Part shown: positions 3,001-64,000 of the stretch, piece after piece
Layout of the letters: each line of letters opens with the position of its first letter
How positions within the stretch are numbered: the first letter of the stretch is position 1
NCBI GenBank assembly: GCA_963930775.1
Contig: OZ005689.1
Location: forward strand, 36,963,351-37,027,350
Reading direction: 5' to 3'
From: Cliona cf. orientalis
Lineage: Eukaryota; Porifera; Demospongiae; Clionaida; Clionaidae
DNA: 64,000 nt
Translations under genes and position numbers: made by a program
Notes under the pieces: generated by a model
Database searches by the model: none
Told to the model about the DNA's origin: nothing
The model's input: only the letters and a program-made list of their open reading frames with translations

Positions 3001-6000
3001 AAATTATTTTTTGTGCCCTCTTCTAAGTTTGTATCTTTAGAATATTGCATCCTAATCTTTGAAAGAATCAATGAAAGCATTTTTCACATATTATTATTGT
3101 CACTGTGGCAATGATCCCCTAATTAACATTATTATCGTCACATACAGATTCTGCTTCACACACTCCTGTCAAATCTAACTTCCCTACTGCTAATCTACCC
3201 AAGTCTAGAGGAGCTGGTGTAAAATCGAAAAGGGATGGTAGCCAGAATCCCACATGTGGTAGGTTATCCAGCATGAAGGGCAAATAGGGAGAGGGCTTGT
3301 ATCGAGAGCGACATTTACATACCTTGAAATAATTTTTGGTGGTGCCTTAATTAGTGCTAGTATCCATATTGCCTTAGACTCTGATACTGACTCCTATGAA
3401 GACAATAACCCCCCTCAACCCAAGTCGAGAGGAGCTACTGTGAAGTCCAAGAAGGGTATGCACACCAAGAGAAATCTCAGAGGTACATGTATTTTTGTAT
3501 GTAATTACACCAGGTGAAGTGTTTATATTATTGATTTACATGTAGGTTGTATTTCTCGTCCTCCTGAAGAGTGTGATCCCCTTGCTGCTAGTCTACCTGA
3601 GACTAAAGTAACTACTACATGTAGAGTATCCAAGAGAGGTACTAGCAGCCAGAGGAACCCTAGAGGTGGTATGTTAATTATTACATGTAATTACACGGGA
3701 TAAATTATGCTGTACAGGCACATTGCTATGTACATGTAGCTACATGTAATTACTGTACATGTATACTGAACTTTTTGCGAGCATTTGACATAGCATAAAA
3801 TTAACATCAATACTAGTGTAGTACACAGGATGTACATGTATACTGCTTCAGGCTGTGTTTCTCGTCCTCCTGAAGAGTGTGATCCCCCTACTGCTAGTCA
3901 ACCGGAAACTGAAGTAACTACCAGAGTATCAAAGAGAGGTACTAGCAGCCAGAGGAACCCTAGAGGCGGTATGTTAATTATTACATGTAATTACACAGGA
4001 TAAAGGCACATGTACATGTACATGTATACTGCTTCAGGCTGTGTTTCTCATCCTCCTAAAGAGTGTGATCCCCCTACTGCTAGTCTACCGGAGACTGAAG
4101 TAACTACCAGAGTATCCAAGAGAGGTACTAGCAGCCAGAGGAACCCTAGAGGTGGTATGTTAATTATTACATGTAATTACGAAGGATGAAGGCACATGTA
4201 CATGTATACTGCTTCAGGCTGTGTTTCTCATCCGCCTGAAGAGTGTGATCCCCCTACTGCTAGTCTACCGGAGACTGGAGTAACTACCAGAGTATCAAAG
4301 AGAGGTACTAGCAGCCAGAGGAACCCTAGAGGCGGTATGTTAATTATTACATGTAATTACACAGGATGAAGGCACATGTACATGTATACTGTTTCAGGCT
4401 GTGTTTCTCATCCTCCTAAAGAGCGTGATCCCCCTACTGCTAGTCTACCGGAGACTGAAGTAACTACCAGAGTATCCAAGAGAGGTACTAGCAGCCAGAG
4501 GAACCCTAGAGGTGGTATGTTAATTATTACATATAATTACGAAGGATGAAGGCACATGTACATGTATACTGCTTCAGGCTGTGTTTCTCGTCCTCCTGAA
4601 GAGTGTGATCCCCCTACTGCTAGTCTACCGGAGACTGAAGTAACTACTAGAGTATCAAAGAGAGGTACTAGCAGCCAGAGGAACCCTAGAGGCGGTAAGT
4701 TAATTATTACATGTAATTATTGCATATGATTACACAGGTGAAGGCACATGTACATGCATACTGCTTCAGGCTGTGTTTCTCGTCCTCCTAAAGAGTGTGA
4801 TCCCCCTACTGCTAGTCTACCGGAGACTGAAGTAACTACCAGAGTATCCAAGAGAGGTACTAGCAGCCAGAGGAACCCTAGAGGTGGTATGTTAATTATT
4901 ACATGTAATTACACAGGATGAAGGCACATGTACATGTATACTGCTTCAGGCTGTGTTTCTCGTCCTCCTGAAGAGTGTGATCCCCCTACTGCTAGTCTAC
5001 CGAAGACTGAAGTAACTACTAGAGTATCCAAGAGAGGTACTAGCAGCCAGAGGAACCCTAGAGGCGGTATGTTAATTATTACATGTAATTACACAGGATG
5101 AAGGCACATGTACACGTATACTGCTTCAGGCTGTGTTTTTCGTCCTCCTAAAGAGTGTGATCCCCCTACTGCTAGTCTACCAGAGACTGAAGTAACTACC
5201 AGAGTATCCAAGAGAGGTACTAGCAGCCAGAGGAACCCTAGAGGCGGTAAGTTAATTATTACATGTAATTATTGCATATGATTACACAGGTGAAGGCACA
5301 TGTACATGCATACTGCTTCAGGCTGTGTTTATCATCCTCCTAAAGAGTGTGATCCCCCTACTGCTAGTCTACCGGAGACTGAAGTAACTACTAGAGTATC
5401 CAAGAGAGGTACTAGCAGCCAGAGGAACCCTAGAGGTGGTATATTAATTATTACATGTGATTACACAGGGTGAAGGTACATGTACATATATACTGCTTCA
5501 GGCTGTGTTTCTCGTCCTCCTGAAGAGTTTGATCCCCCTACTGCTAGTCTACCGGAGACTGAAGTAACTACTAGAGTATCCAAGAGAGGTACTAGTAGCC
5601 AGAGGAACCCTAGAGGTGGTATGTTAATTATTACATGTAATTACGAATGGTGACATGTATACTGCTTCAGGCTGTGTTTCTCGTCCTCCTGAAGAGTTTG
5701 ATCCCCCTACTGCTAGTCTACCGGAGACTGAAGTAACTACTAGAGTATCAAAGAGAGGTACTAGCAGCCAGAGGAACCCTAGAGGTGGTATGTTAATTAT
5801 TACATGTAATTACGAATGGTGAAGGCACATGTACATGTATACTGCTTCAGGCTGTGTTTCTCGTCCTCCTGAAGAGTTTGATCCCCCTACTGCTAGTCTA
5901 CCGGAGACTGAAGTAACTACCAGAGTATCAAAGAGAGGTACTAGCAGCCAGAGGAACCCTAGAAGTGGTATGTTAATTATTGCATGTAATTACACAGGGT

Positions 6001-6235
6001 GAAGGCACATGTATACATGTACATATATACATGTATTGCTTCAGGCTGTGTTTCTCGTCCTCCTGAAGAGTGTGATCCCCCTACTGCTAGTCTACCGGAG
6101 ACTGAAGTAACTACTAGAGTATCCAAGAGAGGTACCGCTACCTTAGTCTCTAAACCTGATCCTCCTCTACCCAAGCCTAAAGGAGCGGCTACTACTGTTA
6201 GGAAGGGCACTAGTAGCAAGACTGAGGGTAACTAA
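1..6235 (+). CDS. Tandem-RING / Ulp1-protease / PHD-finger protein with repeated basic exons (5' end outside window)
   Basis: Multi-exon gene read through about 30 short exons, nearly all joined in phase 1. The first exon (to about 170, GT donor) leads to a RING finger at 426-544 (C-x2-C, PCGH, C-x2-C, CPTC) of the Mind-bomb style. A second RING is split over 608-701 and 779-839 (VCLMCDE, PCGHLFC, CFECRA). Small exons at about 952-1530 encode Ser/Pro/Lys-rich modules. Exon 2183-2986 carries a Ulp1/C48-type protease: DHWACLS gives the His, VDLFDS the Asp, HQEGSSDCG the Gln and Cys. A PHD finger follows at about 2825-2980 (CKC, CCDKC, WYHEGC, CPQC). Repeat exons then run to a TAA at 6235. A role in ubiquitin or SUMO control at chromatin is inference. 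An exon at 6290-6333 could replace the last codons. Confidence 0.72.
209..364 (+). ncRNA. Intronic long hairpin, microRNA-precursor-like candidate
   Basis: Inside the first visible intron of the RING/Ulp1 gene, TTCTCCTCGTAGATAACTT (about 209-227) pairs perfectly with AAGTTATCTACGAGGAGAA (about 346-364). An inner block, TTAGAATGCTCTAATC, pairs with its near complement around 298-316 across a short loop. The two paired blocks are separated by an internal loop. Demosponge pre-miRNAs are known to be long and often intronic. A MITE relic is the main alternative. Confidence 0.35.
426..839 (+). other. Two consecutive RING finger domains over three exons
   Basis: Exons 426-544, 608-701 and 779-839 encode two C3HC4-like RING fingers back to back. 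The first has FVCKTK, FKPCGHSVLC and KKCPTCK; the second has CLMCDE, VEPCGHLFCS, DCSRRM and FECRA. RING fingers usually recruit E2 ubiquitin-conjugating enzymes, so an E3 ligase activity is expected. Intron borders are plain GT-AG and the second RING is interrupted after its CGHLFC segment. Confidence 0.75.
3852..6161 (+). repeat. Tandem array of 13 near-identical 117-nt exons, unit about 180 bp
   Basis: Exon copies start at 3852, 4038, 4218, 4398, 4578, 4770, 4950, 5130, 5322, 5502, 5671, 5851 and 6045. Spacing is mostly 180 bp, with 169-194 bp variants. Each unit holds its own acceptor (GCTTCAG), a 117-nt exon of symmetrical phase 1, and a donor (GGTATGT or GGTAAGT). The exon encodes 39 residues beginning GCVSRPPEECDPPTASLPE and ending SSQRNPRG. 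Every copy is open, so units can be gained or lost without changing frame. Diverged relatives lie at 1275-1368 and 3546-3667. The last copy (6045) is longer, with a new tail. Confidence 0.85.
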
Positions 6236-10397: not shown

Positions 10398-11150
10398 CTG
10401 CTGCTGCATGCTTGTGCTGCTGCATGTGCCATTGCGTGTGCTGCTGCATGTGCCACTGCATGTGCTGCTGCACTGTACTGCATGTGCTGTAGCATGTGCC
10501 ATTACATGCATGTGCTGCTGCCTGTGCCACTGCATGTGCTGCTGCATGTGCCACTGCGTGTGCTGCTGCATTGTACTGCATGTGCTGCTGCATGTGCCAC
10601 TGCATGTGCTGCTGCATTGTACTGCATGTGCTGCAGCATGTGCCATTACATGTGCTGCTGCCTGTGCCACTGCATGTGCTGCTGCATGTGCCACTGCATG
10701 TGCTGCAGCACATGCCATTACATGTGCTGCTGCCTGTGCCACTGCATGTGCTGCTGCATGTGCCACTGCATGTGCTGCTGCATTGTACTGCATGTGCTGC
10801 AGCACGTGTCATTACATGTGCTGCTGCCTGTGCCACTGCATGTGTTGCTGCATGTGCCACTGCATGTGCTGCTGCATTGTACTGCATGTGCTGCAGCACG
10901 TGCCATTACATGTGCTGCTGCCTGTGCCACTGCATGTGCTGCTGCATGTGCCACTGCATGTGCTGCTGCATTGTACTGCATGTGCTGCAGCACGTGCCAT
11001 TACATGTGCTGCTGCCTGTGCCACTGCATGTGCTGCTGCATTGTACTGCATGTGTTACCGCATGCGCCACTGCCTGTGTTGCATGTGCTGCTGCATTGTA
11101 CTGCATGTGTCGCTGCATGTGCTGCCTGTGCTGCTGCATGTGCTGCTGCT
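10398..11150. repeat. 12-bp minisatellite with 94-bp higher-order unit
   Basis: Built from the unit TGTGCTGCTGCA and variants (TGTGCCACTGCA, CGTGCCATTACA), with an occasional 10-bp variant TTGTACTGCA. In the right half the 10-bp variant recurs every 94 bp (about 10782, 10876, 10970). Several frames on both strands stay open because the unit is a multiple of three and lacks stops, so open frames here are no evidence of coding. Confidence 0.85.
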
Positions 11151-11662: not shown

Positions 11663-12745
11663 TTACTCTTGGATGAGCTGGGCAGATATACTTGCCAGTT
11701 CACTGCGAGGCAGCCGGATGTATCTTTTGTATGCGTCGCTGCTCCACCTCCCCAGCGTTTGTATAGTAGTTTCTGGCACTCCTTTGGCTGAGGCCGTCGT
11801 GGCCGCCCCTATACGGAAGGAGTGGCCTGAATAATAGGAGCAGTCGATGCCTGCCTTTGTGAGTGTGGTTCGGAGAGATGATACGAGAGCTTGTTGGGTG
11901 AAGGGGGAGCCTTTTCTATCAATAAAGAGAGGCCCTTCTTTAAAACCTCTTACTCCCATGTAGGCTAGCACCGCCTTTACTGGGCAAATATGGGAGTGGG
12001 TATGCCCGACTACAAGGAATGCTCCTTGCCTCCATTGGTCTGTCTTAGAGCCCTTAATATGAATTTGCAGTACTGTTGGCTTAGACAAGTTGTCAGTAGC
12101 GATGTCCTTGACCGATAGGTGCCAATTGGGGTCGAAACGCTCCCCTTGTTTTAGAGTGAATTCGCCGGAGCGGAGAAAGGCGAAGAAGCCGAGGCAACAA
12201 GCTGCCCAGAGGAGTTTATTCTCATAACTGTCCGGATTCTGGTTTAGAACGTCGAAAATGCGGCTTAAGATAAGCGGGGTAATTGGTAGCCGACAATCTT
12301 TGCGAGACGGTTTTGTTCTACGAGCACCCCTCATGAGGAGCTCAAGTTGCGTTGAACCGCGTAGTGGGTCCTCGTATCCTTCGGAAATGTGCAGGTGCCG
12401 GACTGCAGAGAGGTACGTCCTCATGGATGTGTATGCTATAGTCTGGGAGAGGTCTGCTGCAAATAGTATCAGCTGCTGCTGGTTCGCTGGAAGTGGGTTA
12501 ACTTGCATACGTGAACAGAAGTTCAAGTATCTTGCTTGCGCCGAAGTGTAGGTTTTCCTGGAATTGGGGGCTAGGCTGTTGTTAATGAGGCTATTAGCGA
12601 TGTTCGCCAGATGTCCGACAGCCAGTCGGGTTGCCGAATCACTAGAATATCCCATAGAGGCTCTGGGATTGGAGTGGGTTGTGGTTCGGCCTCCGGTGCC
12701 TGGGAGAATAAACCTGTGGGAGATTGCGAGAAATAGCATCAGCAA
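11663..12745 (-). CDS. Tyrosine recombinase of the DIRS-like element
   Basis: Frame of about 360 residues with the phage-integrase-like C-terminal box (HSFRIGAATTA, LGRW, YKRYIR). In DIRS elements this enzyme integrates the circular DNA intermediate in place of a DDE integrase. A stand-alone Crypton was considered, but the overlap with the RT frame argues against it. Confidence 0.85.
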   Translation of the reverse strand: MLMLFLAISHRFILPGTGGRTTTHSNPRASMGYSSDSATRLAVGHLANIANSLINNSLAPNSRKTYTSAQARYLNFCSRMQVNPLPANQQQLILFAADLSQTIAYTSMRTYLSAVRHLHISEGYEDPLRGSTQLELLMRGARRTKPSRKDCRLPITPLILSRIFDVLNQNPDSYENKLLWAACCLGFFAFLRSGEFTLKQGERFDPNWHLSVKDIATDNLSKPTVLQIHIKGSKTDQWRQGAFLVVGHTHSHICPVKAVLAYMGVRGFKEGPLFIDRKGSPFTQQALVSSLRTTLTKAGIDCSYYSGHSFRIGAATTASAKGVPETTIQTLGRWSSDAYKRYIRLPRSELASISAQLIQE

Positions 12746-14480
12746 TAGAGTTATTGCTACCAGCGATATGTTTGGCGATTAAGTGCACGTTATAGAATGC
12801 CAGAATGAAGTGTAGTGTACGCAAGAGGTGCATTACTAGGGGGTCCCGACTGGTAGAACTAGCCAAGATATTTACTACTGCCATATTATTGTCGCATTTG
12901 AACAGGATGTGGGAGTCGCGCCAACATGCGCCCCATGTAGCGGCAGCCAGAAGTATAGGCAGCAATTCCTTTGTGTGGATTGGTACGTGTTCCCACCGTC
13001 CCAGCCAAGGGCGTTGCAGCCACTTATGCGTTTCTAGGCAGTATGCCCCACAGCCCCAGCTACCTGAGGCGTCCGTAGTGATTGTGAAGGCTGGGGGCTG
13101 TAGAGGTGTGACCACGTGCATCATTGATTTGCCGTTCCAAAACTGCAAGAAGGTGCGCCACCACGCGAGGTCAGATTTGAAGTCCGCTGTCAGGTGTATC
13201 CAATGGTCTAGTTGCTTCGCTTTGTTGGCTGTGTCGATCATTCGACGAAGAAAAGTTCGGCCTGGGGTCACGATCTTAGCTGCATGCGATAGCTTCCCGA
13301 TTAAGGAGAGGAGTTCCCGCTTTTTCCCAGCCCGCTTGGAGGACCATTTGGCTATGAGCTGCTGTAATTCTGCCACTTTCCCGTCTGGGAGACGCATTTC
13401 CATTGCTACTGTGTCCAACAGTATCCCCAGGAAGACAAGCATCGTAGTGGGCCCCTCGACCTTTTCATACTTGAGGGGGAGTCCCAGTGTCTTGCAGCTA
13501 GATTTAGTGATTTGCAAATTGTTGAAGCACTCTTGTGATGCGGGTGATCCTAGGAATAGAAAATCATCTAGGTAGTGTAGGAGGTCGGTAACCCCTTCGT
13601 TGGATAATATCCATTCTAACGCATCTGCAATCGCGTTAAATATCTTTGGTGCCGACCTCAGCCCAAAGGGGAGAACAGTATCTACGTACACGAACCCATT
13701 CCATGACATTCCTAGGAACTTTCTGTCGGCTGGGTGAATCGGGATGTTACGAAAAGCATGCTGGATGTCAATTTTTGCCAATAGTGTGCCTTGGCCAAGA
13801 TGTAGGATTCGCCTGACAGCCTGGTCTACTGTAGCGTATGTGAGTGAGCATAGGTCTTTTTGTATAGCATCATTGACACTGTTGCCGTGTGGGCTGGAGA
13901 GATCGAGTATCAAGCGCCACTTTCCAGGCTGCCCAGATTTGGGGATAACCCCAAATCTACTAATCTGAATGAGTGGGTTATCAGGGACTGGACCCCTGAT
14001 CCGGCCGGCTTGTAGTTCTGTGCGCAGGTAGTCTTCTACCGGAGTAGGGTGTAGTAACGCCGAGTGCATGTTTCCTTTTGCCCTTTTACAGGTGAGGAGC
14101 CTGTTGACGCCAATGTGAAAGCCTTTTGCGATACCTGACAGTATGTACTGTGCAAAGTGTCTGTCGGGGTGCAAGGCTAGGGCCTTCTCCCATTGATGGT
14201 GGCTGAGGGGGGTAGTAATGTTGCAAGCCGAGGGTGGCAGTGGGATTGGTTCTGCATCTGTGTGAGATTCCAATTCTAGCAAGTGTTGGGTATAAGGGTA
14301 TAACTGAGGGTTATTGCTTTGCTCATTTAGATAGATATACCAGTCTTTATACAATATTTGTAGCGAATTATCCTGTGTAGCCAAATGCGATTGTAATCGG
14401 GTCCTATGGGGGGAGGGGGGCGAAGAAGAGCATGAATCAGCCAAATGGTGATGTGCATGGGGGAGGGGTGGCGGCCGCAC
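12642..14480 (-). CDS. Reverse transcriptase / RNase H of the DIRS-like element
   Basis: Frame of about 612 residues. RT motifs are recognisable (RLILDLSSPHG, LPFGLRSAPKIF, YLDD), followed by an RNase H start (TTDASGSWG). It overlaps the recombinase frame by about 100 bp, as in this family. Confidence 0.85.
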   Translation of the reverse strand: MRPPPLPHAHHHLADSCSSSPPSPHRTRLQSHLATQDNSLQILYKDWYIYLNEQSNNPQLYPYTQHLLELESHTDAEPIPLPPSACNITTPLSHHQWEKALALHPDRHFAQYILSGIAKGFHIGVNRLLTCKRAKGNMHSALLHPTPVEDYLRTELQAGRIRGPVPDNPLIQISRFGVIPKSGQPGKWRLILDLSSPHGNSVNDAIQKDLCSLTYATVDQAVRRILHLGQGTLLAKIDIQHAFRNIPIHPADRKFLGMSWNGFVYVDTVLPFGLRSAPKIFNAIADALEWILSNEGVTDLLHYLDDFLFLGSPASQECFNNLQITKSSCKTLGLPLKYEKVEGPTTMLVFLGILLDTVAMEMRLPDGKVAELQQLIAKWSSKRAGKKRELLSLIGKLSHAAKIVTPGRTFLRRMIDTANKAKQLDHWIHLTADFKSDLAWWRTFLQFWNGKSMMHVVTPLQPPAFTITTDASGSWGCGAYCLETHKWLQRPWLGRWEHVPIHTKELLPILLAAATWGACWRDSHILFKCDNNMAVVNILASSTSRDPLVMHLLRTLHFILAFYNVHLIAKHIAGSNNSIADAISRNLPQVYSPRHRRPNHNPLQSQSLYGIF

Positions 14481-14481
14481 T

Positions 14482-15288
14482 CTATCGCCTGGCGGCGTCA
14501 GGCCGAAAGGGTGGTCCCCCTCCGACCTGCCTCTGCTGGTTGGTTGGGCAGGTATGTGCTTTGTGCCGTGTAGAGCTGCACTTTAAACAGCAGTGCCGGT
14601 ATCTACAAAATCGAAGGTTGCATCCCTCTGGTGAATTCCATTTTCTGCAGATGGGGGCGGTGGTGTATGGGTTAGCCCGTGGCTTGTCCGTAGACTTGGC
14701 ACTTTTTCCACCCGCCTCTACCTTTTTTAGGTTAGTGTCCTCTTCTAACTGCGGGGTTTTTGCCTTAGCCCGTGTGAAGTATATTGTCCACAGAGCTGCA
14801 TCGAGGCGAGCCCATGGCTCATTGGGTTTTGTTGCTGCTTGTCGGCGGAAGTGCGTGTCGTAGTGAAGCCATGGCATATCATCATAGTCTATGCTTGCTT
14901 TGATGATGATGGAACAATATGCTAGGAGGTCGGCTGTGCGCTCTGGCTCACGCATGAGGATAATAGAGGAGTACGTGTTGAAGCATATCACCCATTCCTG
15001 GATGGATGATATTTGCTTTTTGGGGCGTGCTTTATCCGTCTTTCCAAATAGATCAAAAACGGTGGGCTCCGGAGCGCCTAGCTGCGATGGGAGCAAGTCT
15101 CGAAAATCAACGAATTCCTTCTTCCAAATCCGCTCGGCCAATTTTTTGGGCACTGGGGGAGAGTAGGGGCCTACGCTGATAGCCTCTGTGGACTGTGTAG
15201 TTTGAGGGGCATTGAGAGCTGTCAGGGGGGTGGTAAGGGGGACCAGCAGTGGGGGGTCTGCTGCACCAGACGAGGTAATGGTTTGCAT
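14482..15288 (-). CDS. Gag-like protein of the DIRS-like element
   Basis: Frame of about 268 residues ending in a cysteine/histidine-rich zinc-knuckle region (CRKWNSPEGC, CRYRHC, CLKC). It stops directly before the RT frame. A short upstream frame at 15605-15874 with coiled-coil-like composition may be its leader part. Confidence 0.6.
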   Translation of the reverse strand: MQTITSSGAADPPLLVPLTTPLTALNAPQTTQSTEAISVGPYSPPVPKKLAERIWKKEFVDFRDLLPSQLGAPEPTVFDLFGKTDKARPKKQISSIQEWVICFNTYSSIILMREPERTADLLAYCSIIIKASIDYDDMPWLHYDTHFRRQAATKPNEPWARLDAALWTIYFTRAKAKTPQLEEDTNLKKVEAGGKSAKSTDKPRANPYTTAPICRKWNSPEGCNLRFCRYRHCCLKCSSTRHKAHTCPTNQQRQVGGGPPFRPDAARR

Positions 15289-15855
15289 GCCGGCTAGGGT
15301 ACGGGGATCAGGGAGTTGAGCAAGTGGGGTTTCTGGCGTGCTGCGTGTTTGCTCAGCCCCTGTGGAATACGAATGACTATATCATAGGCCGCACATAATA
15401 TGATAATTGTGTATTCGAGGTTATGGGACCATTGGTATTGCTTTTTAGTGCTATAGCCACAGCGGTGTTATTGCCTTGCCATGTGGCCCCGTCACTGTAA
15501 ATACTATGGTAGGGCGCAAGCCTTGTGGTACTGCTTGGCCCGCACGTGATTGGCGCGTGCGTATTAACAATGGCGCCAATAATTATTTATATGCATGCCT
15601 GGCCTTATAATTTTTTAACTTGCTTAAACATACATAGCAGTTTACCTTGAGCCTGGAGGGACTGAGTCACTTTTTCGGCGATCGCGTTTTCCAGAGAAGG
15701 CAGCGCCGCCTGTATTGACCCTGTTATCATAGACTGGAGCTGGTCCATGGATAACTCGGCTCTTCTTGGCTGCTCGACTCCCCCTGTCTGGTCGTCAGGA
15801 CTATGAGGGTTGCCGTCCGAATCGTCCTGCGACATCTTTTTCCCTTGGTATCCGC

Positions 15856-47539: not shown

Positions 47540-50500
47540 ATGACGGAGAGCAAAGAAAACGCGATCGGCGCTACCGCCTTGGACAGCCGGGATCAACTAT
47601 AGTAGACGGACCAGACCTTCTAGAAACTCGAAAATGCTGAAATATGAATCTGCTCATCATGTGGGCGTGTCAGACCAGCCGATCACGATGTAGGCGTGTC
47701 CAAACATGACGTGATTCATGGTCACATGTACATGTACGTATATGGATAAAAATCGCTTGCTACAATGAATGAAAGGTGATTGTCGTAAATGGAGTGGAAA
47801 GAAAGGCCAGGATGCGGCAGCCAATCAAACAGGATACCTTAGTGCAATATCTCGGCACAAGCTGTGCAAAGCTGCTGAGGCTGTCCTACCATGACACTCA
47901 CGCCACATGAACTCGTCAAGATAGGAGCTCATCATCTGGTCATGGCAACCTCTCATTCTCTTTATCTTGATTTTTACTCTGTTCCAATATGACTCTATAT
48001 TTTGAGTGTGGACCCCAGTTGTAGAGTTGACGAACTCAATACTGTGGTTTACCGTTTGGTGTTGAGCCACAGGAGGGAGGTGTTGCACATTATTGTATGC
48101 CGCCCACATATCACTCCACACTACTGTTCCTGGATGAACATGTCGCTGGATTATGGGGAGGAGAGTGGCAGCATCACGGGAGGCAACTAGCTCCATTACT
48201 CCAAGTGCTGGACTCACGCTCGTGTCTACCATACCAAACATCCATATCTGCTGACGTCTCTGCCGCATCAGTCACCGGATACTCCCTAATCCACCAGTGC
48301 AACAAGACAAGCCACTTCTGGAGGGATAACTTTGACTTCTCAAAGAAACTCCCATGGCGCAGACTCTGTGTCTTTCTGCAAGTGGTCACTGGACACCGCC
48401 ACCTACAATTAACCATTGCCTGTCTATATATGCTGTGTATACTACTACACTGCCTCAGTGGCGTACCCAGAGGGGTGCTCAGGGTGCTGGAGCACCCCCA
48501 TCAGCCCTGGCACAACAGCCAGTTCTGTAGCTCAGTGACAAATATTGTTACTGATAATCGATGACTGGAAGCTACTACCAATAATAAACTTACTGGCCTC
48601 TAAAATTCGCTCCCAAAACAGAACAGCTTTCTTTGTCAGCCAGCTACCTTCAAGAATGCGTTTAATTGGGGGTGTGGTCAATATTTTGGGGGCGTGGCAC
48701 CCCCTCCCTCAAATCCTGGGGACGCCACTGCTGCCTAGGGTATAATCATTTACCTCCGTTTATCCTGGATATCGTTTTGTGTATGTATGACCATTGCAGT
48801 ACCACAAACAGAGCAATTGGGCTGAAGAGATAGCAAGTTCTTCTGCTGAAACCAGGCAATCTGCTTGTCAAGATCACCAAAAATAACCTGCCCAAGATCC
48901 AAGATGCTCATCTTTCCGCCAGAAGTGCACAGTAGCCTGCTCAACTTCCCTGCGCTTGCTACTGATTGGCCATTGAGCTATCATAGGTGCATTCCCGAGA
49001 ATTTACTTATATTAACTCTCAAAGTGCGCATGTGCGTGCATAATGATATTGGGCTTTTCCATTTAATAGCCATACACCCCCACGGAAGAGCCATAATTAC
49101 ATCTGAGGGGTCTAAATTTATGCCATTTTAATGAGTTCTTGATGGGTAAAAATAGGTTTTTAATGAAATCTTGATGGGTAAATACCCACTTTTAATGAAA
49201 TCTAGATGGTTACCATGAAGACAATAATGAATCCTGGGGGATTTTCATGCAAATGATACTGCATCTTGTTGCATTTTAATGAGTCTTGGAGGGGTCAAGC
49301 CCTCTTTTTAATTGGTTCTTGATGGTTAAAGTCAATAATTAGGCTTCCTGAGGGGGTAAATCAAAATTTAGTCTTCCGTGGGGGTGTATCTTGGAATAGC
49401 CCATTATTACGCATGCGCATAATATAATTATATTCAATACTGATATTACTGAACGGATCGCGGACACGCCTAGTACACGATGAGCGGATTCCTGAAGTTG
49501 AGTACAGCATATTTCAGCATTTTCGAGTTTCTAGAAGGTCTGGTCCGTCTACTATAGTTGATCCGACAGCCGTCTCGCCGAAGAAGCTGGCTACAGTGAC
49601 GACTCCACCGCAAAGCCTATCGCGAGAAAGAAGAAAAACACTCGAAAACGACGTCATGGTGAGTCGACAGAGAGTAGATACAGTAGCGCTATAGTTACGC
49701 TAATTATCTTGGCTTATTGAAGGGACTTCCTCACAATTAGATTGAACGGAAGTGAGCCCTTAATTAATTTATCCTGTTTCCGGGGTGGGTGTGGCAAACC
49801 TAATGAGTAGGGTCTGGCTCGACTGGTGAGCATGCCCAGACCAACCACTTCCTGTATCTTAATGAGATTCATGCTCCATTGATTCAGACATTCCTGTGGC
49901 TTTGTTTAATATGGAAATGGACAGTAAATTTGTGTACCGCGAAATATTACCCTGCTTATGAGACTGCATGGGCAATCATGGCCATAATGCATTATAGAAT
50001 ATTTTCAAAGACTTAATCCAGTAGTTCACCAATTATCCCTGAGAAAATTGAATATTTATGTACCGTATTTATACTAATAGAATGTAAGTGAAGAAAATAA
50101 TTACGATTTCAATTTTAGTGTGATTTTCTGGTTAAGTTCGTCACACCTTACATTAAGATGGACCGTAGATCTGGAAATTTTCGTGTAAACAATTTTTGTA
50201 GGAACGACCCTTTACTGCATTTGCGTTAATGGTGCGTGCTAATTTTTGTAAGATTAACTTTCGTAGCCACCATCGACTACGAAAATATTTTTACAACGAA
50301 AATTTCCAGACTTACGGTAGTATAAGAATTTTCTTGTGTTAATTAGATCTTGCGTTTTATTTGCATAAACACAGTAATTCATTTTACGAATAATTTTTTT
50401 AGATAATCTAACATTCATGTGGAAATTTAGATATTATTTTAATACCCTAAATAGTGGTTATTTATTTGTATGGATACTGTCCGTCAGGTAAACTGTTTCC

Positions 50501-53500
50501 CTTTCCCTGCCACAGCTCTAACACACGACAATGTTCTAAAGGAACTCAAAGAGCTCAACTGGAAGACACTTGGCAGGTTTAATGGTGTCCTGGAGCTCCC
50601 TGTGTCTGAGCGGCAGAGGATTGAGGGGATGTACATTTCAAAGGAAGAGCGTAAGAGTGCAGGAGTGTTGTGGTGGGTGGATCACCACCCCCTAGCCTCC
50701 TGGAGGCTACTAATAACGCGACTGGACATATGGGGGGAACATTCACTAGCCAACCGGATTCATCAGTATACAGAGAAAGTGACTGGTATGTTGAGCAGTG
50801 TCTTGTATTGTCATTGACAGCTATACAATTCCAGTTAATATACTCAGATATAAGCATGTGCACTCCAGTTAGTGGGCGTGAAGATGAGGTACACATGTAC
50901 AAGGTTGTTCTATCCATATCATGTGTATAAAGTGTGTAGCCATGCAGCCAATGCATAAGGTGAATAGTATCTCATAGTAGATCCAGTCACTAGACCATTC
51001 TGCTGCTCTGCTTGCATGTAGCATAGTAATGTGCTCAGTGTGCACCTCGATCTGGTAATGGTCGTCAATTTGTATGTAAGCATGTGTATGGGGGCACCAC
51101 ATGAGTGTGCAGTATGTGTTGGCTGTCACTCCCTGTCCTGGTTGGATCAGCTCAGAGTTGTAATGATGATTATGGTGTGTGCATAATGTGTACATGATGC
51201 AGATCCTTTGTCTCCTTATTCCTCAGACCACAGCTTCACCCATCAAAACATCTCCATGGTCACTGCCACAGTTGACGATTATAAACTGGCTGAGTTCATT
51301 CTGCAAGTACCAGGATCCATACAGTACGAGATAAGAGAGAAAACCTCTACTTCTGCTGACTTTAGGGAGGGGGCTATAGAGTACTACATCCAGTACTCCC
51401 CCCGAGCTACCTGGGCTGAACTGGCAGGACGACTCTACTTGATGGAATGTGGTGAAGCGTTGGCTGCAGCTAGGAGGTATATTGAGAGAACACCTGGTAA
51501 GTGTGTGTATATACCTCTCTCCAACAGTCCCAGCTCTAATGCAACTGTGACTTAGTAGTTCCAAGTCAATGATATGAGAACAAAATAGTTGTTCATTTAT
51601 GGCATTATTGAATAATATTCATTATTTTTGGGTACTAATTAGCCTATCAATTGATCTATGTGACCTTCTATGACTAAACCAACCATATTGCGCTGACTAC
51701 CGATTTTTAGTTAAGGCCACCATTACCAACTACAACCTTTGAACTATCGCTCCTGCAAATTTGAAGTCTCTAGTCATGGAGATATGAGCCAAAATGTACC
51801 CGGATTGTCCGTAATAAGAATGTGCAGCAAGCACAATGAAGCATTGCTACGTACGTTGCACGCGGAAGTCCGTATACTCGCTGTTTATGCAAAATACGTG
51901 GCCACGCCCACTAAGTCAAGGAGCCAGATGGCAGCCAAAACGTTGGAAAGAAAGCAGCAGCCTGCGTTTCGATGGAAAAGAACGAAAAGATAAGCGTGTC
52001 TATAGATCGTTGGTACACAAAATCGAAGAAAGAAGTGTCCGGAGAGCTTTTTCTGTGCAGCTGCCGTGCTTGCCTACCTGCAACTATGGCAACGGCTCCG
52101 TATCATGGACGGTCACTGTTAGCTACTCGGCCGACTTCTTCGAGCCATAACTCAGTAAGTATAGCGTTCTAGAAGCTACGAAGCAGATTTTTGTGTAGAG
52201 GAATTATGATTGTGTAGAGGAATTATGATTCCTCTATCGATCTATGCCAAAAAGTGAAAAATGATAATTATCACCTTGGGCAACTAAACAGGCCTGTATC
52301 TCAGATTGATATCCAGCGCAATATGGTTGGTTTTGTCGTGGACGGTCACCTATGTGATAACTATCTAAGGAGACAATAACTATGGCACATGAATCTAGTT
52401 CCTTTGGAAGCTAGTGTTGTGGTCATGTGCAAGTCTTAGCATGTGATTATTGCCATGTAGTGTATCTTGTAGAGAGAGGAAGTGGAGTAGGTTTGTCTCC
52501 AGCCATGTTATAGTGAGGGACACAGGTGTTGTACACTGTAGTGTGGGAGCAATGCTCAGTTTGGCCCATGCAGAAATTTGTAGTCATTGTTGATGTTGGT
52601 GTAGTGATGTTTGGGAGTGGTGGAGCAAACTGTTGACTGTTGATACTAATATGTGCGTGCACAGGTGGCACTCTCAATACCTATCATTATTGTATTGTCC
52701 ATTGATTCATTTCAGAGACAACTCTCAATCTACCAAACCTCAACACTCTGTTGGAGAGAGTCAATCATGACTGGTATGATATTGGAGCATATATCAACAT
52801 ACCTCCATCAAAGCTTGATGAAATAAGGAAGCAACACCCTTATAATGCTCGACGCTGCAGCCATGCATGTTGGGAACTGTATCTCAAGGATCATCCCTCC
52901 CCAACATGGCAACTAGTGGCCTATGCACTCTATGAGTGGGACCACCTTGAAGAGCTGGAGGTGGTACTAAAGAAATACCTCAAAGGTGAGTGAGCAATGA
53001 TCATCTCATGCTATCCATAGTTTGTTATTATTTTTGCCAGGAGAAAATTTTTACCACCTGCTCTCACTGGCGAGAATAATTATAAGGCCACTGTAACTTA
53101 TATACTTGTTTCCCGTCCCGAGAGCATGCGGGCGGGCGGTCATTATTCAATATTCATTGTGTATGAATATCATTATGTAACCACGAAAACCTTGCCCACT
53201 TCCTGTTGTTTACAATGAGCATGACTAGCCTAGCTGGCTTGCTGTAGCAACGCATAGTGAATTTTGAGGCAGCTACAAAATAAGCATACGGGTGGGTGAT
53301 GGGTAACAAGGAATCAAGTTACAGTAGCCTTGTTATTTTCTTCTAACTTCTTCAAATTTTTCTACAATACAAAAGTAGCTAAGCTTGGTGAAATTTATAT
53401 CTAGTGTAAATTTTTACAAAAAATAATGATAATTGGTGCTTTTTATGCACTCAGTAACAATTTACTTTTTTGCGGTTATTAGGTAATTATGAGGTAATCT

Positions 53501-56500
53501 ATGAGGTAATTATGAGAAAATTCAGGGCCTCGATGGAGCCCTTCTGGGACTTGAAATTTAGTGAAATATGTAGAGTATCTTGCGCGTGTATCCAGCGAAT
53601 GCCTTACAAGCAGCGTGTTGCCTTCTCTGACGAGCAGCGACGGCCGAACTTCACACGTTTTCTAGGCTGATGTAATCCCGTGGATATATAAATAGCCCTG
53701 CGCTATATATAGCACATGAGTAGCGTGCCGCCGGACCAATCTAGCTGTACTGCGCTGTTGAGTTCTTCTTAGCTTTGAAATTTTTCACTATCGAGGTCCA
53801 GAGACACTCTCAGATTCCCAATGATCCTAGGCTAGTCTGTGACTGAGGCGCTGGCATCGAACTGTACAGTGAAGAAAATCCACTATATTGACGACCATTA
53901 CCATATGTGACCGTATCTGACAAAACCCGGCATATGGGATCCGCGCGCTATTAGCGCAATGCGCGTTTTTAGTACCTCAAGTCAAAAAATGTCAAAGTCG
54001 AGATTTTGTCATATACATGTCGAACAACCCTTCTTCTAATTGTTGCCGTCTTCTACAGAGGCTAATCGTGCTATACGAAGGCGAAATATGCCTTCATTTT
54101 GACCCACCTAGTTGGCACAGCCGCCGTACACAGAGCCCGTTGCTATGGGCGGTAATTAGAATTCTCTACCTAGAGACAGCTAGATTCATCGAACTACTGT
54201 ATGTTTGCTCACCTTTTTAGCTTCTTAGGCATCTAAGAACAATCGGCTGTCATTGTCAACAACGAAATTCAACTCTTGCTCGATCTTTATGTTCATTTCA
54301 AACGGCTCCGCCCAGGTCCATTTAATTGATTTCCGGGTCACGCGTAGTATGCAGAAATGCCTTCCGCGTGCCTAGTAACGCCTTTAGACCGTAATTTCTC
54401 GATTATTGGGGGTGTGGTGAGATCGCAAACAAAGCGCTGTATCTCCATAACGAAGCGCACAGTCGCTCTGAAACTGAACGCGGATTAGCTCCATGTTAGA
54501 GCTTATCAACCATACACAAAACTCAACTTTCACAAAAAATCCCATATGCCGGGTTTTCTCAGAGACAGTCACATATACACCATTTCAACTATGCAGCTAC
54601 TGAGTGCATGGTCAAGTGTTCATTGTATACTAATTAGGGTAATTAAGTACTGCATTAGTATTATCCCAGTGCATTAGACACTTACAGTAATCAAAATGGT
54701 AGTGCATAGCAACTCAAGTGGACGATGTGGTGGTACATGTTATGAATGTCATTAAGTATCCCATGTTGCTGCATTCGCTTTGCCATGGTGAAACTAGGTG
54801 TACACGTGATAAATGCTTATTCAGCGTCTCTGTGCCCTTGTTTGATGCATCATGTGACTAACTAGTATCAGATTATGATTTAGTTTCAATCTCCTACCCA
54901 TCTCATTCACTCATTTATGGCCACCTTGATTAATTTTGATTCCCCAGGTAGTGCTGAGAATCTCCGTCAATTTGAAGAAGCAATGAAGCACGGACACATC
55001 CGATCGTGGATGTGGAAGCTTCTCCTATACGGAGCAGCCGGCTCTGGCAAGTCTTCCGTGAAAGAAATGATTTTGGGTAACCCTCCGCCAGTGAATAGAA
55101 CCAGTACACCTCTAGCAATGAGGCCAACTGCTGTCTACCGAATCAACCTCGACGGCAAAGAGTTCACTACGATCACTACTCTCCAAGAGCGCAGAGCATT
55201 TCTTGCACGAGCATTACTACAATCTGCTCCCAATTTGAAACATCGTTTGCGTGCAGCTCGAGCCAAAGTAGCCTCCTCCAGTAGCGACCAACCCGTCTCC
55301 ACTGTAGCTGTGTCCCAGGTCCAATCCAAGGACCAGGCGTCACCTGACCAGGGCAAGACTCCACCTTTAGATGACCAACCTCCTTCAGCCTCACTGCTAG
55401 AACCTGCTAGTTTAGATCACAGGGAATCGGATGAAGATATTGATAGTGAAGTAGATGACATTCTCCGATCGATATCGACTGATCGGGAGCTTGTTATGCT
55501 GATGGGCCGTATCTCCACCACTGTAGATCAGCCAGCTTCCTTTCGATTGCTTGAGATAGTTGATGCTGGGGGTCAGCCCCAGTTCCATGAAATTTTGCCT
55601 ATATTTCTTCGACGTCTTTCTTTCTATGTCTTTGTCTTTCGACTCATCGATGACCTATCCACCCGGCCTGTGGTAGAATACTATAGTGAAGCCAAAGCAA
55701 TAGGTAGTTCCATGATCTCTTCTCAGACCATTGAGCAGCTCCTTCAGCACTGTGCTAGAACCATGCACTCCCATAGAGCATCCCAAGGCAGCGAAGGTGA
55801 TTGTCCAAAGATTATAGTTATTGGCACACATGCTGACAAAGTGAGGTACTTCAAAGATTCAAAGTATGATAAGAAAAATGTACAAATCTTCCAGCTTCTT
55901 CAGCCAATGCTTGGAAAACAGATTATCTATTATGACGTATCCACCCAGAGAGTTGTCTTCCCAGTAAATTCCAAGATTCCCGAGAGCAAGGACTGGAGTG
56001 TCATCGAACAGGTTCGTGACGTGCTTTTGGGTGAAACATCGATCCCCCCAGTTGATATTCCAGCAAGGTGGTTTGCGTTAGAAATTCTTTTAGAAGAGAT
56101 GGCCCAAGCTCTTAAGCGAGGTGTCCTCAGTCGACAGGATTGCTTCGCTGCTGCCATCGAAAAGCTTCACTTTGAAGAGGATGCTGGTGAGTTTGATGCT
56201 GCCATCCATTACCTTGATGAGCTTTCTGTTCTCCTCTACTATCCCCATATTCTTCCGGATGTTGTCTTTGCTGATCCCCAGGTGGTTCTAGATAAGGTCA
56301 CTGAGCTTGTCATTGCTTCCTTTGAAAGAAATGCCTCAAAATCAAAAGGTCATAATGATAGCTGGTGCAAGTTTTATCAATTTGCATTAGTTACGGTGGA
56401 GTTTCTCTCGCAGTCTGATTTCGATAAGCATTACGTGCCAGGGCTTTTTGATGTTGACGATCTCATCAAGCTTTTCAAAAAGTTGCTGATTTTTGCTCAT

Positions 56501-57448
56501 TTCAGCGCTACTGAGCTCCTTGTTCCCGCACTCCTTCGAGATCTCGATAAAAAAGAAGTCATCAAAATTCGTCGTTCTGCTCGCTCGAGTGCTGCCAAAC
56601 CATCCTTCACTGTAGTCTTTCCAGACGGAGGCCCAAGGAGAGGTATCTACTGTTCTCTCTTGTGCTGGCTGGTTTCAGACGAGGAAAACTCCCCAGCTAC
56701 ATGGTCCATTTTGACAAACAAATTTGGCGTACCAACATGTCTTCATCGCAACTGTGTGCAATTCAAGCTTCACAAATCGCCTGCTGTGGTAACGCTAATC
56801 GATACCTACACACATTTTGAAATCCACGTCAATGCTCCAATCGATATCTGTCCAAAGATAATCCCTATGATTTGCCAGACCATCTTCAAGGGATTAGGTA
56901 AGGTTGCCCTCAATCTGAACTACGATGGGTCCAGCCCTTCTCCCGCTCTGGTCTGTCCTTGTGGTAGAGGAGATGCTCATGTAGCAACAGCCAACACAGA
57001 ACTTGGTTACTGGACATGCACACAGAATGTGACAAAGTATAGTAAGCTGACCCCACTTCAACTTCTTTGGCTTGAACAAGTAATGGCAGATCCCTCCGAA
57101 GCTTCTGAACAAGTAACAACAGACCCCTCCGAAGCTGCTACAGTAGCACTCGCTTATGATAGAAATACTATTTTCAGTGATCGTGATTTTTCGAACCTTC
57201 TAACACAGCTCAAAAAATATGCAACTAAATGGCGAGACATTGGTACCCACCTGGGATTTTATTCTTGGGAGCTTGACAACATTCAGGCTAGACCTTTTCT
57301 GATGCAGACTGCTCCTGAAAGCTGGCTTGGAGCCATGTTGACAGAGTGGCTTCAAAGAGCTCCAAATGACACTCGAGGGAGCTCTTCTATCGAATCGTTA
57401 ACGCTCGCTCTTAGTAAATGTGGAATTGGAATGAAACTTGAACAGTAA
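47540..57448 (+). CDS. Death-domain / Roco-type GTPase protein, first exon interrupted by a Merlin element
   Basis: Exon 1 is 47540-47589 continued at 49573-49658 around the transposon. Then come 50516-50785, 51227-51496, 52716-52985 and 54948-57448. All junctions are phase 1 and the sum (3447 nt) is 1148 codons plus TAA. Domains: a basic N-terminus (ARKKKNTRKRRH); three death-domain-like exons of about 90 residues each (about 46-315, e.g. LNWKTLGRFNGVL, HPLASWRLLI); a Roc-like GTPase (P-loop GAAGSGKSS near 345, DAGGQ near 520, IGTHADK near 610); a COR/winged-helix-like stretch; and a C-terminal death-like region (KWRDIGTHLGFYSWELDNIQ). Such proteins act as cytosolic signalling or innate-immune scaffolds. 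With the insertion this allele cannot make the normal N-terminus unless a later start is used. Confidence 0.75.
47825..48944 (-). pseudogene. Merlin transposase, internally deleted
   Basis: Exon 1 48944-48754 carries half of a zinc ribbon (CSVCGTAM); exon 2 from 48402 continues it (WRCPVTTCRKTQSLRHGSFF). The catalytic part follows in another frame from about 48268: MFGMVDTSVSPALGVMEL, WSDMWAAYNN (second Asp), HQTVNHSIEFV, TGVHTQNIESYW (Glu). The stretch that should carry the first catalytic Asp (DES-type motif) between DAAETSA and QIWMFGMVD is missing, about 40-50 residues by family comparison, and the frame shifts there (about 48240-48268). It is therefore not autonomous and was probably moved by a transposase made elsewhere. 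Its intron (48403-48753) houses a MITE. Confidence 0.75.
48456..48730. mobile_element. hAT-like MITE nested in the Merlin transposase intron
   Basis: Ends CAGTGGCGTACCCAGAG and TCCTGGGGACGCCACTG are flanked by CTGCCT on both sides. Same end family as 37706-38064. Confidence 0.75.
49052..49405. mobile_element. MITE nested in the Merlin element
   Basis: GGGCTTTTCCATTTAATAGC ... ACACCCCCACGGAAG on the left mirrors CTTCCGTGGGGGTGT ... TTGGAATAGCCC on the right. The interior repeats TTTAATGA(A/G)TTCTTGATGGGTAAA-like segments three to four times. Confidence 0.7.
50145..50325. mobile_element. MITE in intron 1 of the Roco-type gene
   Basis: ACCGTAGATCTGGAAATTTTCGT on the left (only its first 20 bases are needed to see the match) mirrors ACGAAAATTTCCAGACTTAC on the right. 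Non-coding; related half-copy near 31980. Confidence 0.55.
51650..52350. mobile_element. MITE in intron 3 of the Roco-type gene
   Basis: TATGTGACC ... AAACCAACCATATTGCGCTG on the left mirrors CAGCGCAATATGGTTGGTTT ... GGTCACCTATGTGA on the right. Open frames inside are not convincing. Confidence 0.6.
53911..54580. mobile_element. MITE in intron 4 of the Roco-type gene
   Basis: CATATGTGACCGTATCTGAC ... AAAACCCGGCATATGGGAT on the left mirrors ATCCCATATGCCGGGTTTTC ... CAGTCACATATA on the right. No coding content. Confidence 0.65.
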
Positions 57449-62587: not shown

Positions 62588-64000
62588 TTATTCAGTCTGA
62601 ATAGAGACATCAACTCGGTCACTTTTGTTGGAAGAGTATCCTTGATTATGAAGGACACTGCTTGAACTGACTTGCTTCTTACTAGTGTGAAATGTGTCCA
62701 AGGTTGTGGCATGGTTTTGATCGCTTTCTTTCTTCTTGTTTGAAAACAGGAAGTAGACCTTTGGTACTAGTAGGCAGCAGAGAGTTACAGTGGCACTTAG
62801 AATAATGGCAATAACAAGAGAACCGGTTTGGAAACTGGTTCGAAGCGCAGTGGTCACAAAGTATGTTGGAATGAAAGCAAGCCACAGGACACACAGGGTA
62901 TACACAGTCAAGTTGATGAATTTAGCCTCATTAAAGTTCTGTGGTACTCTCCTTGTTCGGAAGGCAAAGTACGTAGTCACAGCTAAGAGCAGTATGTTGT
63001 AGGCTAGTGTCACAGAGAGTCCAATGTAGGGATTTTCACTACAAGTCAAGTCTGTGGTCAAATCATCATATGTGAAAAGAGTACTGGGTTGTTCTACAAC
63101 TAACCAAACTGTAGCGATAGCTACTTGGACAGCAACCAGACAAGCAGTGAAAAACTGCTGACTCTGTGGACTGATGAAAGGAGGAGTTTGACCAGATGCA
63201 GAATCTCGATTGAAGATACGATGTATTCGATTTGTCTTGATTAATAAAGCACTAAGAAGCAAAAACCAACTCCAAGACGTCGAATAGCACATGATGCTGG
63301 AGAAGGTTTGGCTATGTAGATGAAAGGCATGAGATAGCAAAGCATTATGCCACAGAGGAGCACAGCATTGAGTTCTCGACTTGATGCCTTTATGAGATGC
63401 TTGTTATGATAGACTATGAACACTATAGTCACAAAGGTGGTAGCAGCAATGCCAAGTAGGGCCAATGCAATAATGATGATAGCCAGAGGGTTGGACCATG
63501 TGAGAAAATCCGGTTGTATGTAAATACAGTTTGTCTTATCTTTGTTTGGTCTAAGACCTAGTTCACATTCGTGACATACAAATCCATTGCTGATCTGTCT
63601 ATTCCCTGCACACTGTTTGCAAGTCCAGCAGCACTGTGCCTGGTTAACCACTGGCTGGGAATACTCACCTCCATCACAAGATCGGCTGCAAATCGACTCT
63701 GGCACATCGCTGCTATTAATTATAAGGCTATGCTTCCACTGGATATTTCCATACATTAGTAATGGTGATTCTCGCTCTGTAGGGAATTTGTCCCACTTTC
63801 CAACAGTGACATATAAAAAGTGTTCATCGGAATCCATTTGGAGATTCATAATATCATAACCACCTTGCTGATCTCCATTTTCATCAAACTGTATCCTCTC
63901 AGCTGAGGTGCCATTGAAAGATACATTGTGCAAGTACTGTAAAAGTAGTTCACCATTTATTGCTGTTTCCTTCAGCTGAGTTTCAAGTACTTCTGGACAG
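62588..64000 (-). CDS. Class C GPCR, metabotropic-glutamate-receptor-like (N-terminus outside window)
   Basis: Minus strand, running off the window edge. First comes the end of the ligand-binding region, then the cysteine-rich NCD3G segment (CSRSCDGGEYSQ, QCCWTCKQC, NGFVCHECELG). TM1 (about LAIIIIALALLGIAATTFV), TM2 (LLCGIMLCYLMPFIYIA) and TM3 (CAIRRLGVGFCF) follow. After a frame break near 63244-63253 the chain resumes with SALLIKTNRIHRIF, TM4-TM7 and a Ser-rich tail ending VDVSIQTE. KTNRIHRIF is a hallmark of mGluR/CaSR-type receptors. The single break lies in otherwise well-kept sequence, so it may be allelic, an assembly slip or a very young pseudogene. Confidence 0.8.

What the first reader, a model, noticed from the sequence alone, without database searches (positions are those of the whole stretch)
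47540..49658. Recent Merlin insertion splits the first coding exon of a death-domain/Roco gene
GACAGCCG flanks the element and both sides read as one exon: the 50 nt before and 86 nt after it give 45 codons plus 1 nt, matching the phase of the next exon. The five exons close at 1148 codons. Element plus duplication is 1983 bp, a multiple of three, though stops lie inside. With 57-bp perfect TIRs this looks like a young, perhaps still segregating knockout of an immune-type signalling gene.
Basis: partly seen in the sequence, partly recalled or inferred. Interest (0 to 1): 0.85.

Follow-up and report, generated by a model that had tools for sequence, protein, structure and literature searches.

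The report
Jumping gene splits an immune-like gene
A cut-and-paste DNA transposon has landed inside the first coding piece of one member of a large family of cell-death-type signalling genes; the insertion is real and probably disables the normal start of this one gene copy, which is an ordinary event, though the gene family around it looks unusually variable.

Summary
A 1975-bp Merlin element (47590-49564; TIRs 57/57; GACAGCCG on both sides) interrupts a 136-nt first coding exon. The same genome gives the control: with the flanks joined, 23 of 33 matches run through the insertion point and none of the 23 carries the element. The five exons close at 1148 codons. The gloss is partly supported. 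The TIR is nearly invariant in the family, so it does not show youth. This copy has 13 private substitutions in 1326 sites, lacks about 270 bp of transposase and holds two nested elements not seen in the copies compared: recent, not brand new. No empty allele is in the assembly, so segregation cannot be judged. Knockout is likely but unproven: translation stops after 20 codons, yet everything downstream is open; a start at residue 84 or a weak in-frame splice could rescue it. Wider: exon 1 of two relatives is split by other transposons; one of these is clearly broken downstream. Exons 2-4, death-domain-like, vary at matching positions while exon 5 is conserved: a possible diversifying repertoire, not proven.

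The parts
47540..47589 (+). first half of coding exon 1 (ATG, 16 codons and 2 nt)
   Evidence: Aligned with 15 relatives' rows from 13 loci; ATG and frame shared by the 11 relatives aligned in frame (L011, L012, L015, L021 not in that set; L015 has CTG in place of ATG)
47582..47589 (.). target-site duplication copy 1, GACAGCCG
47590..49564 (-). Merlin DNA transposon, 1975 bp, transposase remnants on the minus strand
   Evidence: TIRs; DDE_Tnp_IS1595 E 2.2e-19; copies
47590..47646 (+). left terminal inverted repeat, 57 nt
49508..49564 (-). right terminal inverted repeat, 57 nt
47825..48268 (-). [quoted passage not shown] beside it, near 48257/48258, 197-278 bp present in 11 of 11 copies that reach both sides is missing, including the stretch with IDESLF
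48456..48730 (.). nested miniature element, CAGTGGCG...CGCCACTG ends, 6-bp duplication CTGCCT (48450-48455, 48731-48736)
   Evidence: no match to it in any of the 16 copy loci, 10 of which reach both sides
49051..49402 (.). nested miniature element, GGGCT...AGCCC ends, 3-bp duplication ATT (49048-49050, 49403-49405)
   Evidence: no match to it in any of the 16 copy loci, 10 of which reach both sides
49565..49572 (.). target-site duplication copy 2, GACAGCCG
49573..49658 (+). second half of coding exon 1 (86 nt), donor GTGAGT follows
50516..50785 (+). exon 2, 270 nt, death-fold-like by alignment pattern only (Pfam 0 of 11 members at E 0.05; not folded)
51227..51496 (+). exon 3, 270 nt, death-fold-like by alignment pattern (Pfam Death 0 of 12 at E 0.05; five helices in a low-confidence model, pLDDT 56)
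52716..52985 (+). exon 4, 270 nt, death domain (Pfam Death in 6 of 11 members at E 0.05, window copy below cut-off; six-helix model pLDDT 77; best PDB match a FADD death domain at E 0.2)
54948..57448 (+). exon 5: P-loop/Roc-like GTPase region (Roc in 3 of 6, COR-A in 1 of 6 members at E 0.05) and C-terminal death domain (4 of 6), stop at the end

Best explanation
A non-autonomous, transposase-deleted Merlin DNA transposon was inserted by cut-and-paste into the first coding exon of one member of a large clustered family of death-domain/Roc-like genes, duplicating 8 bp of target (shown by sequence). It parts the 5' flank, the start codon and the first 16 codons and 2 nt from the rest of the gene (shown). 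Most likely the normal full-length protein is no longer made from this copy: a transcript from the old promoter would stop after 20 codons (shown for DNA; RNA inferred). The remaining 3.3 kb of coding sequence is still open because the insertion is fairly recent, at most about 1-1.6% divergence ago, or because a shorter product is still used (inferred).
For: Perfect 57-nt TIRs and 8-bp duplication; other copies with the same ends, 6 of 9 cut out with exact 8-bp duplications; IS1595/Merlin transposase domain; empty site in 23 of 33 genome matches to the joined flanks, none of the 23 with the element; shared ATG, frame and donor in relatives; 1148 open codons; stop after 20 codons; private divergence 13 of 1326 and terminal branch 1.6%; missing stretch with IDESLF.
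Against: No RNA. Everything after the element is intact, while at least one relative whose exon 1 is split by another transposon (C18) is broken downstream, so this copy may still be in use. The element shows 10 private small length changes against its five closest copies (one of those five, L030, has 12, the others 0-4), a loss of about 270 bp and two nested inserts, but the 3297 nt of downstream coding sequence examined show no disabling change. If all those changes arose in place, drift of a dead gene fits poorly. Nonsense alone does not decide (chance of none 0.11-0.54).
Confidence: 0.8

Rival explanations
1. The gene still makes a shortened protein from a start downstream of the element (first in-frame Met in exon 2 at 50629, residue 84, leaving 1065 residues), with transcription from the element or intron 1. 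It would lack the basic N-terminal stretch and part of the first death-like domain.
For: Downstream exons intact with no stop or frameshift. Exon 5 of this lineage has 58.5 synonymous to 52.5 nonsynonymous changes, like L010 (35.5 to 30.5) and L040 (33 to 31). Private length changes in the element beside an intact coding sequence.
Against: Most exon-5 changes must predate the insertion, so they do not test it. No promoter evidence. No in-frame Met remains in exon 1 after the element.
Confidence: 0.2
2. The element is spliced out as a new intron: donor GT at 47602-47603 in the left TIR, acceptor AG at 49568-49569 in the second target-site copy, which keeps the frame.
For: This is the only GT in the 100 donor positions scanned, and two of the acceptors within 200 positions give an open frame with it. 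Splicing of DNA transposons out of exons is known in maize (recalled).
Against: The donor (ATA|GTAGAC) is weak; no RNA; with one donor and 200 acceptor positions a pair can arise by chance.
Confidence: 0.08
3. The insertion is a polymorphism: the assembly shows one haplotype and an empty allele still exists in the population.
For: Private divergence of 1-1.6% is within the heterozygosity known for some marine invertebrates (recalled).
Against: No second copy of either flank in the assembly; the next best match to the joined flanks is a different gene at 92%. Two nested inserts suggest some persistence, unless they came with the donor.
Confidence: 0.35
4. The true first exon lies elsewhere and the split stretch is untranslated.
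For: No RNA seen. One relative, L015, has CTG in place of the ATG.
Against: ATG and the 45-codon frame are kept in the 11 relatives aligned in frame, with length changes in multiples of three, and the donor in the 13 rows that reach it; pN/pS is 0.48.
Confidence: 0.05

Closest known systems
Merlin DNA transposon superfamily (eukaryotic kin of IS1016/IS1595), PMC8101967 (passages seen)
   Same: GG...CC ends, TIR length in the stated 24-462 bp range, 8-bp duplications, DDE_Tnp_IS1595 domain
   Different: This copy has lost about 270 bp of transposase and carries two nested miniature elements. That paper reports only 3 sequences in Porifera (Amphimedon).
ROCO (Roc-COR) proteins with death or CARD domains, e.g. 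DAPK1 and the placozoan set (PMC4104024 and PMC11378527, passages seen)
   Same: P-loop/Roc-like region, a weak COR-A match, death domain
   Different: Three death-like domains in single 270-nt exons before the GTPase region; the window's Roc score is below its cut-off and COR-A matched only 1 of 6 members. No kinase match in the Pfam scans.
Brown-algal LRR-ROCO candidate immune receptors (PMC11378527, abstract and passages seen)
   Same: Large ROCO family with one repeat or domain per phase-symmetric exon and variable positions in those exons
   Different: There 72-bp LRR exons with reported positive selection; here 270-nt death-like exons, positive selection not established.
Amphimedon Death + TRADD-N expansions (PMC8195603, passages seen)
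   Same: Very large animal families with 1-3 N-terminal Death-like domains in most architectural types, suspected immune use
   Different: There TRADD-N follows and the C-terminus varies; here a Roc-like exon follows and is conserved, and the N-terminal exons vary.

Membership tests
Merlin superfamily | TIRs beginning 5'-GG, 24-462 bp | tested here: met
   57 nt, GGATCAAC...; range from PMC8101967
Merlin superfamily | 8- or 9-bp target-site duplication | tested here: met
   GACAGCCG here; 6 of 9 other copies cut out have exact 8-bp duplications
Merlin superfamily | DDE_Tnp_IS1595 domain | tested here: met
   E 2.2e-19, 70.4 bits against cut-off 27
Merlin superfamily | complete DDE triad | tested here: not met
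   In this copy the stretch with IDESLF is missing; WSDMW and NIESYW remain (which residues are catalytic is recalled). L023 and L025 show all three motifs, so the family meets it and this copy is a non-autonomous member. None of the ten copies has one long open frame; longest minus-strand ORF 150 aa
Merlin superfamily | no Zn_Tnp_IS1595 domain | tested here: inconclusive
   No such Pfam match on three ORF fragments of this copy, but its N-terminus is fragmentary
Death domain family | Pfam Death above gathering score | tested here: not met
   Window exon 4 18.9 bits and exon 5 18.3 bits against 22.6; at E 0.05, 6 of 11 and 4 of 6 members match, their bit scores not shown
Death domain family | six-helix death fold | tested here: inconclusive
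   Exon 4: six helices, pLDDT 77; best PDB match FADD death domain, probability 0.96 but E 0.2, TM about 0.5, no match at E 0.001; exon 3 pLDDT 56, five helices; exon 2 not folded
ROCO proteins | Roc and COR domains in tandem | tested here: inconclusive
   At E 0.05 Roc in 3 of 6 and COR-A in 1 of 6 (E 0.001); window Roc 17.2 bits against 27; no PDB sequence match at E 0.1
Diversifying immune-receptor family | positive selection at specific sites | tested here: inconclusive
   Neutral star simulations reaching the observed number of columns with 5 or more residues: exon 4 0 of 500, exon 3 3 of 500, exon 2 55 of 500; at a 1.5-fold higher rate 63, 406 and 499 of 500

The most novel reading that the evidence does not exclude
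The gene belongs to a large animal repertoire in which each death-fold domain sits in its own interchangeable 270-nt exon. Residues on one face (second and third helix and the loop before the last helix) are diversified between copies, while the GTPase exon is held constant and the 5' parts are swapped between otherwise old paralogs. Specificity would then lie in death-domain assembly surfaces rather than in LRR-type sensors. Repeated transposon hits in the shared first exon would be one way copies are silenced.
Probability: 0.25. Interest if true: 0.7.

Novelty: new member of a known kind. Interest (0 to 1): 0.35.

Why it matters
The insertion itself is a clean natural disruption with an internal control: many relatives in the same genome keep the empty site. 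It gives a roughly datable event for studying birth and death in a large cell-death-type gene family. The wider pattern, if confirmed, would be an animal counterpart of the exon-shuffled brown-algal ROCO genes, with death-fold domains as the variable part.

Tried and rejected
A whole-element alignment paired the 270-bp loss with a nested insert and gave a false 220 private differences; replaced by segment-wise alignment. The length being a multiple of three was considered and dropped as meaningless. PDB sequence searches with the exon-5 and exon-4 profiles found nothing useful (none at E 0.1; one chance-like match at E 0.46). The exon-3 model was too uncertain to search. A positive-selection claim was tested by simulation and not upheld firmly. 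Paper searches for 'Merlin transposon' with 'sponge' and for death domain, Porifera, sponge genome, tandem duplication, ROCO, immune listed nothing; some searches gave the papers cited or nothing close. That the genome is a sponge's is my guess and was not tested. Rows left out before counts: exon 1 of L011, L012, L015 and L021, exon 3 of L014 (partial), exon 4 of L014 and of L040 (same gene as L017); L026 and L027 hold the same Merlin copy.

Full report
Observation. The element at 47590-49564 has 57-nt perfectly complementary ends, is 1975 bp long and is flanked by GACAGCCG at 47582-47589 and 49565-49572. The two exon halves make 136 nt; with exons at 50516-50785, 51227-51496, 52716-52985 and 54948-57448, all in the same phase and, within the gene, with GT/AG borders, the frame is open for 1148 codons. 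Read straight on from the ATG, translation stops after 20 codons, and the frame just upstream of the second half is closed by TGA at 49559-49561 (read by eye).

Empty-site control. The window lies in a 216.8-Mb assembly of 149 contigs. The joined flanks (243 nt) gave 33 matches: 23 cover both sides of the insertion point without a break (22 loci), 2 are the window's own halves, 8 do not cover both sides, and none of the 23 contains the element. In the alignment of 15 rows from 13 fetched loci, 13 continue through the exon to its donor (L014b lacks 3 nt at the point and L021 a stretch before it); L011 and L015 pass the Merlin point but break off a little further on. L015 has CTG in place of the ATG. 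In the 11 relatives aligned in frame, ATG and frame are kept and length differences are multiples of three. The nearest match, L009, is 92% identical and a different gene; no second haplotype of this place was found in the assembly.

What the element is. The minus-strand remnant matches DDE_Tnp_IS1595 (E 2.2e-19), the domain that marks Merlin and its bacterial kin (PMC8101967, passages). Of nine other copies cut out, six have exact 8-bp duplications; L022 does not, and for L025 and L035 one end was truncated or misplaced in my cut. The 57-nt end is identical in six other copies and 98% in two, so end-to-end identity says little about age. The window copy lacks 197-278 bp that all 11 copies reaching both sides have near 48257/48258, including the stretch with IDESLF. 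It carries two inserts, 48456-48730 with CTGCCT duplications and 49051-49402 with ATT duplications. None of the 16 copy loci matches either insert, and for each insert 10 of the 16 reach both sides. None of the ten copies translated has one long open transposase frame (longest minus-strand ORF 150 aa).

Age. Aligned segment by segment against nine copies, this one differs by 2.4% from its nearest relative (L029) and has 13 private substitutions in 1326 sites, 11 of them transitions; its terminal branch is 1.6%. The nested inserts have 5 of 276 and 7 of 352 private sites, against 11 and 6 copies (the second count includes some end-alignment artefacts). These are upper limits, since some changes may have come with the donor. 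So the insertion is recent relative to the paralogs but probably persisted long enough to collect two inserts here, unless it arrived with them from a donor now lost.

Effect on the gene. The simplest reading is loss of the normal start. Against a long-dead gene: none of the 1148 codons is broken, while 10 private small length changes are seen in about 1.33 kb of the element against its five closest copies (of those, L030 has 12, L024 4, L023 and L025 2, L029 0). Nonsense alone would be absent by chance with probability 0.11-0.54 over the divergences considered. Of the two relatives whose exon 1 is split by other elements, the C18 gene keeps open exons 3 and 4 but its exon 5 lacks most of its middle; for the C1 gene at 37.388 Mb exons 2 and 3 are open and exons 4 and 5 were not found in the 9.9 kb fetched, so its state is unsettled. 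L012, with unsplit exon 1, has a frameshift and stops in exon 5, so a whole exon 1 does not guarantee a whole gene. Exon 5 of L009, L010, L019, L040 and L041 showed no stop in the stretches aligned. Possible rescues are a start at residue 84 in exon 2 and a weak in-frame splice, 47602 to 49569; neither has RNA support.

Other hits in the same exon. L015 (C18) has a 5.4-kb insert with GGGCTATTCC...GGAATAGCCC ends. L011 (C1) has an insert with CCCATATAG...CTATATGGG ends, after which the exon seems to resume about 13 kb on, in L042; the insert was not read through, and since that right half exists in five near-identical copies the pairing rests on order and orientation. With the window this makes three different elements within about 26 nt of one short exon. 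I did not compute a firm expectation.

The family. Exon 5 gave 60 matches, from 53 scored of 674 candidates. Exons 4 and 3 each gave 150 matches, the scoring cap (of 847 and 401 candidates). At E 0.05 Pfam finds Death in 6 of 11 exon-4, 0 of 12 exon-3, 0 of 11 exon-2 and 4 of 6 exon-5 members, Roc in 3 of 6 and COR-A in 1 of 6; the window's own scores are below the curated cut-offs. The exon-4 model has six helices (pLDDT 77); its best PDB matches are FADD death domains at E 0.2 and above, TM about 0.5. Exon 3 gave a poor five-helix model.

Variation. Between the window gene and L009, exons 1-4 have dS 0.07-0.16 but exon 5 has 0.96; introns 1-3 match at 75-98% in pieces and the 3' flank not at all. 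I infer that the 5' part has been exchanged more recently than the 3' part. Exon 5 has dN/dS 0.24-0.31 over 15 pairs, exons 2-4 0.6-2.0 in the 15 pairs with the window. Variability profiles of the three death-like exons correlate at aligned positions (Spearman 0.42-0.51). In exon 4 the columns with five or more residues are 21, 24, 30, 34, 38 and 74, which fall in helices 2 and 3 and the loop before helix 6 of the model. Neutral star simulations at the observed pS reach the observed number of such columns in 0 of 500 (exon 4), 3 of 500 (exon 3) and 55 of 500 (exon 2); at a 1.5-fold higher rate in 63, 406 and 499 of 500. Columns were chosen for being variable, so their pN/pS of 1.2-1.4 is biased. 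A relaxed surface over a conserved core would also give the correlation. I therefore treat diversifying selection as open.

Comparison. Brown-algal LRR-ROCO genes have one LRR per 72-bp exon, exon shuffling and positively selected sites (PMC11378527, abstract and passages). Placozoan ROCO proteins with CARD and death domains are known (PMC4104024, passages). The sponge Amphimedon has 357 TRADD-N proteins, most architectural types with 1-3 Death-like domains (PMC8195603, passages). I found no paper on a ROCO family with exon-sized variable death domains in the searches, which cover open-licence papers only.

Verdict. Real, well controlled, and ordinary in kind: a non-autonomous Merlin insertion into a coding exon of one member of a large family. 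The more interesting lead is the family itself.

Noticed in passing
L042-L046 (C1:37388348, 37457665, 37451268, 37221021, 37215230): The right half of exon 1 with a transposon end and intron recurs five times; the other four match L043 at 99.9-100% over 1168-1284 nt. All lie near the end of contig C1, two pairs inverted: very recent segmental duplication or an assembly duplicate.
   Followed up: partly
L015:1111-6480: Exon 1 of the C18 relative is split by a 5.4-kb insert whose ends resemble the GGGCT...AGCCC element nested in the window's Merlin.
   Followed up: partly
L014:1021-1320; L020:821-1200: Partial tandem duplications of exon 1 inside two relatives.
   Followed up: no
window gene against L009: Mosaic gene: exons 1-4 and introns 1-3 close to L009, exon 5 about 0.96 synonymous changes per site away; change-over near intron 4.
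   Followed up: partly
11663-15381, minus strand: ORFs with a phage-integrase-type recombinase and a reverse transcriptase, as in tyrosine-recombinase retrotransposons (classification recalled).
   Followed up: no
2158-3111, plus strand: ORF with a PHD finger near its end and, by eye, a Ulp1-like protease stretch; possibly transposon-derived.
   Followed up: no
3830-6135: Tandem array of a 180-bp unit, 12.6 copies at 91% match.
   Followed up: no
10402-11149: Tandem array with 12- and 24-bp units, open in several frames.
   Followed up: no
62588-63403, minus strand: Fragment of a seven-transmembrane class C receptor (7tm_3, E 5.8e-41).
   Followed up: no
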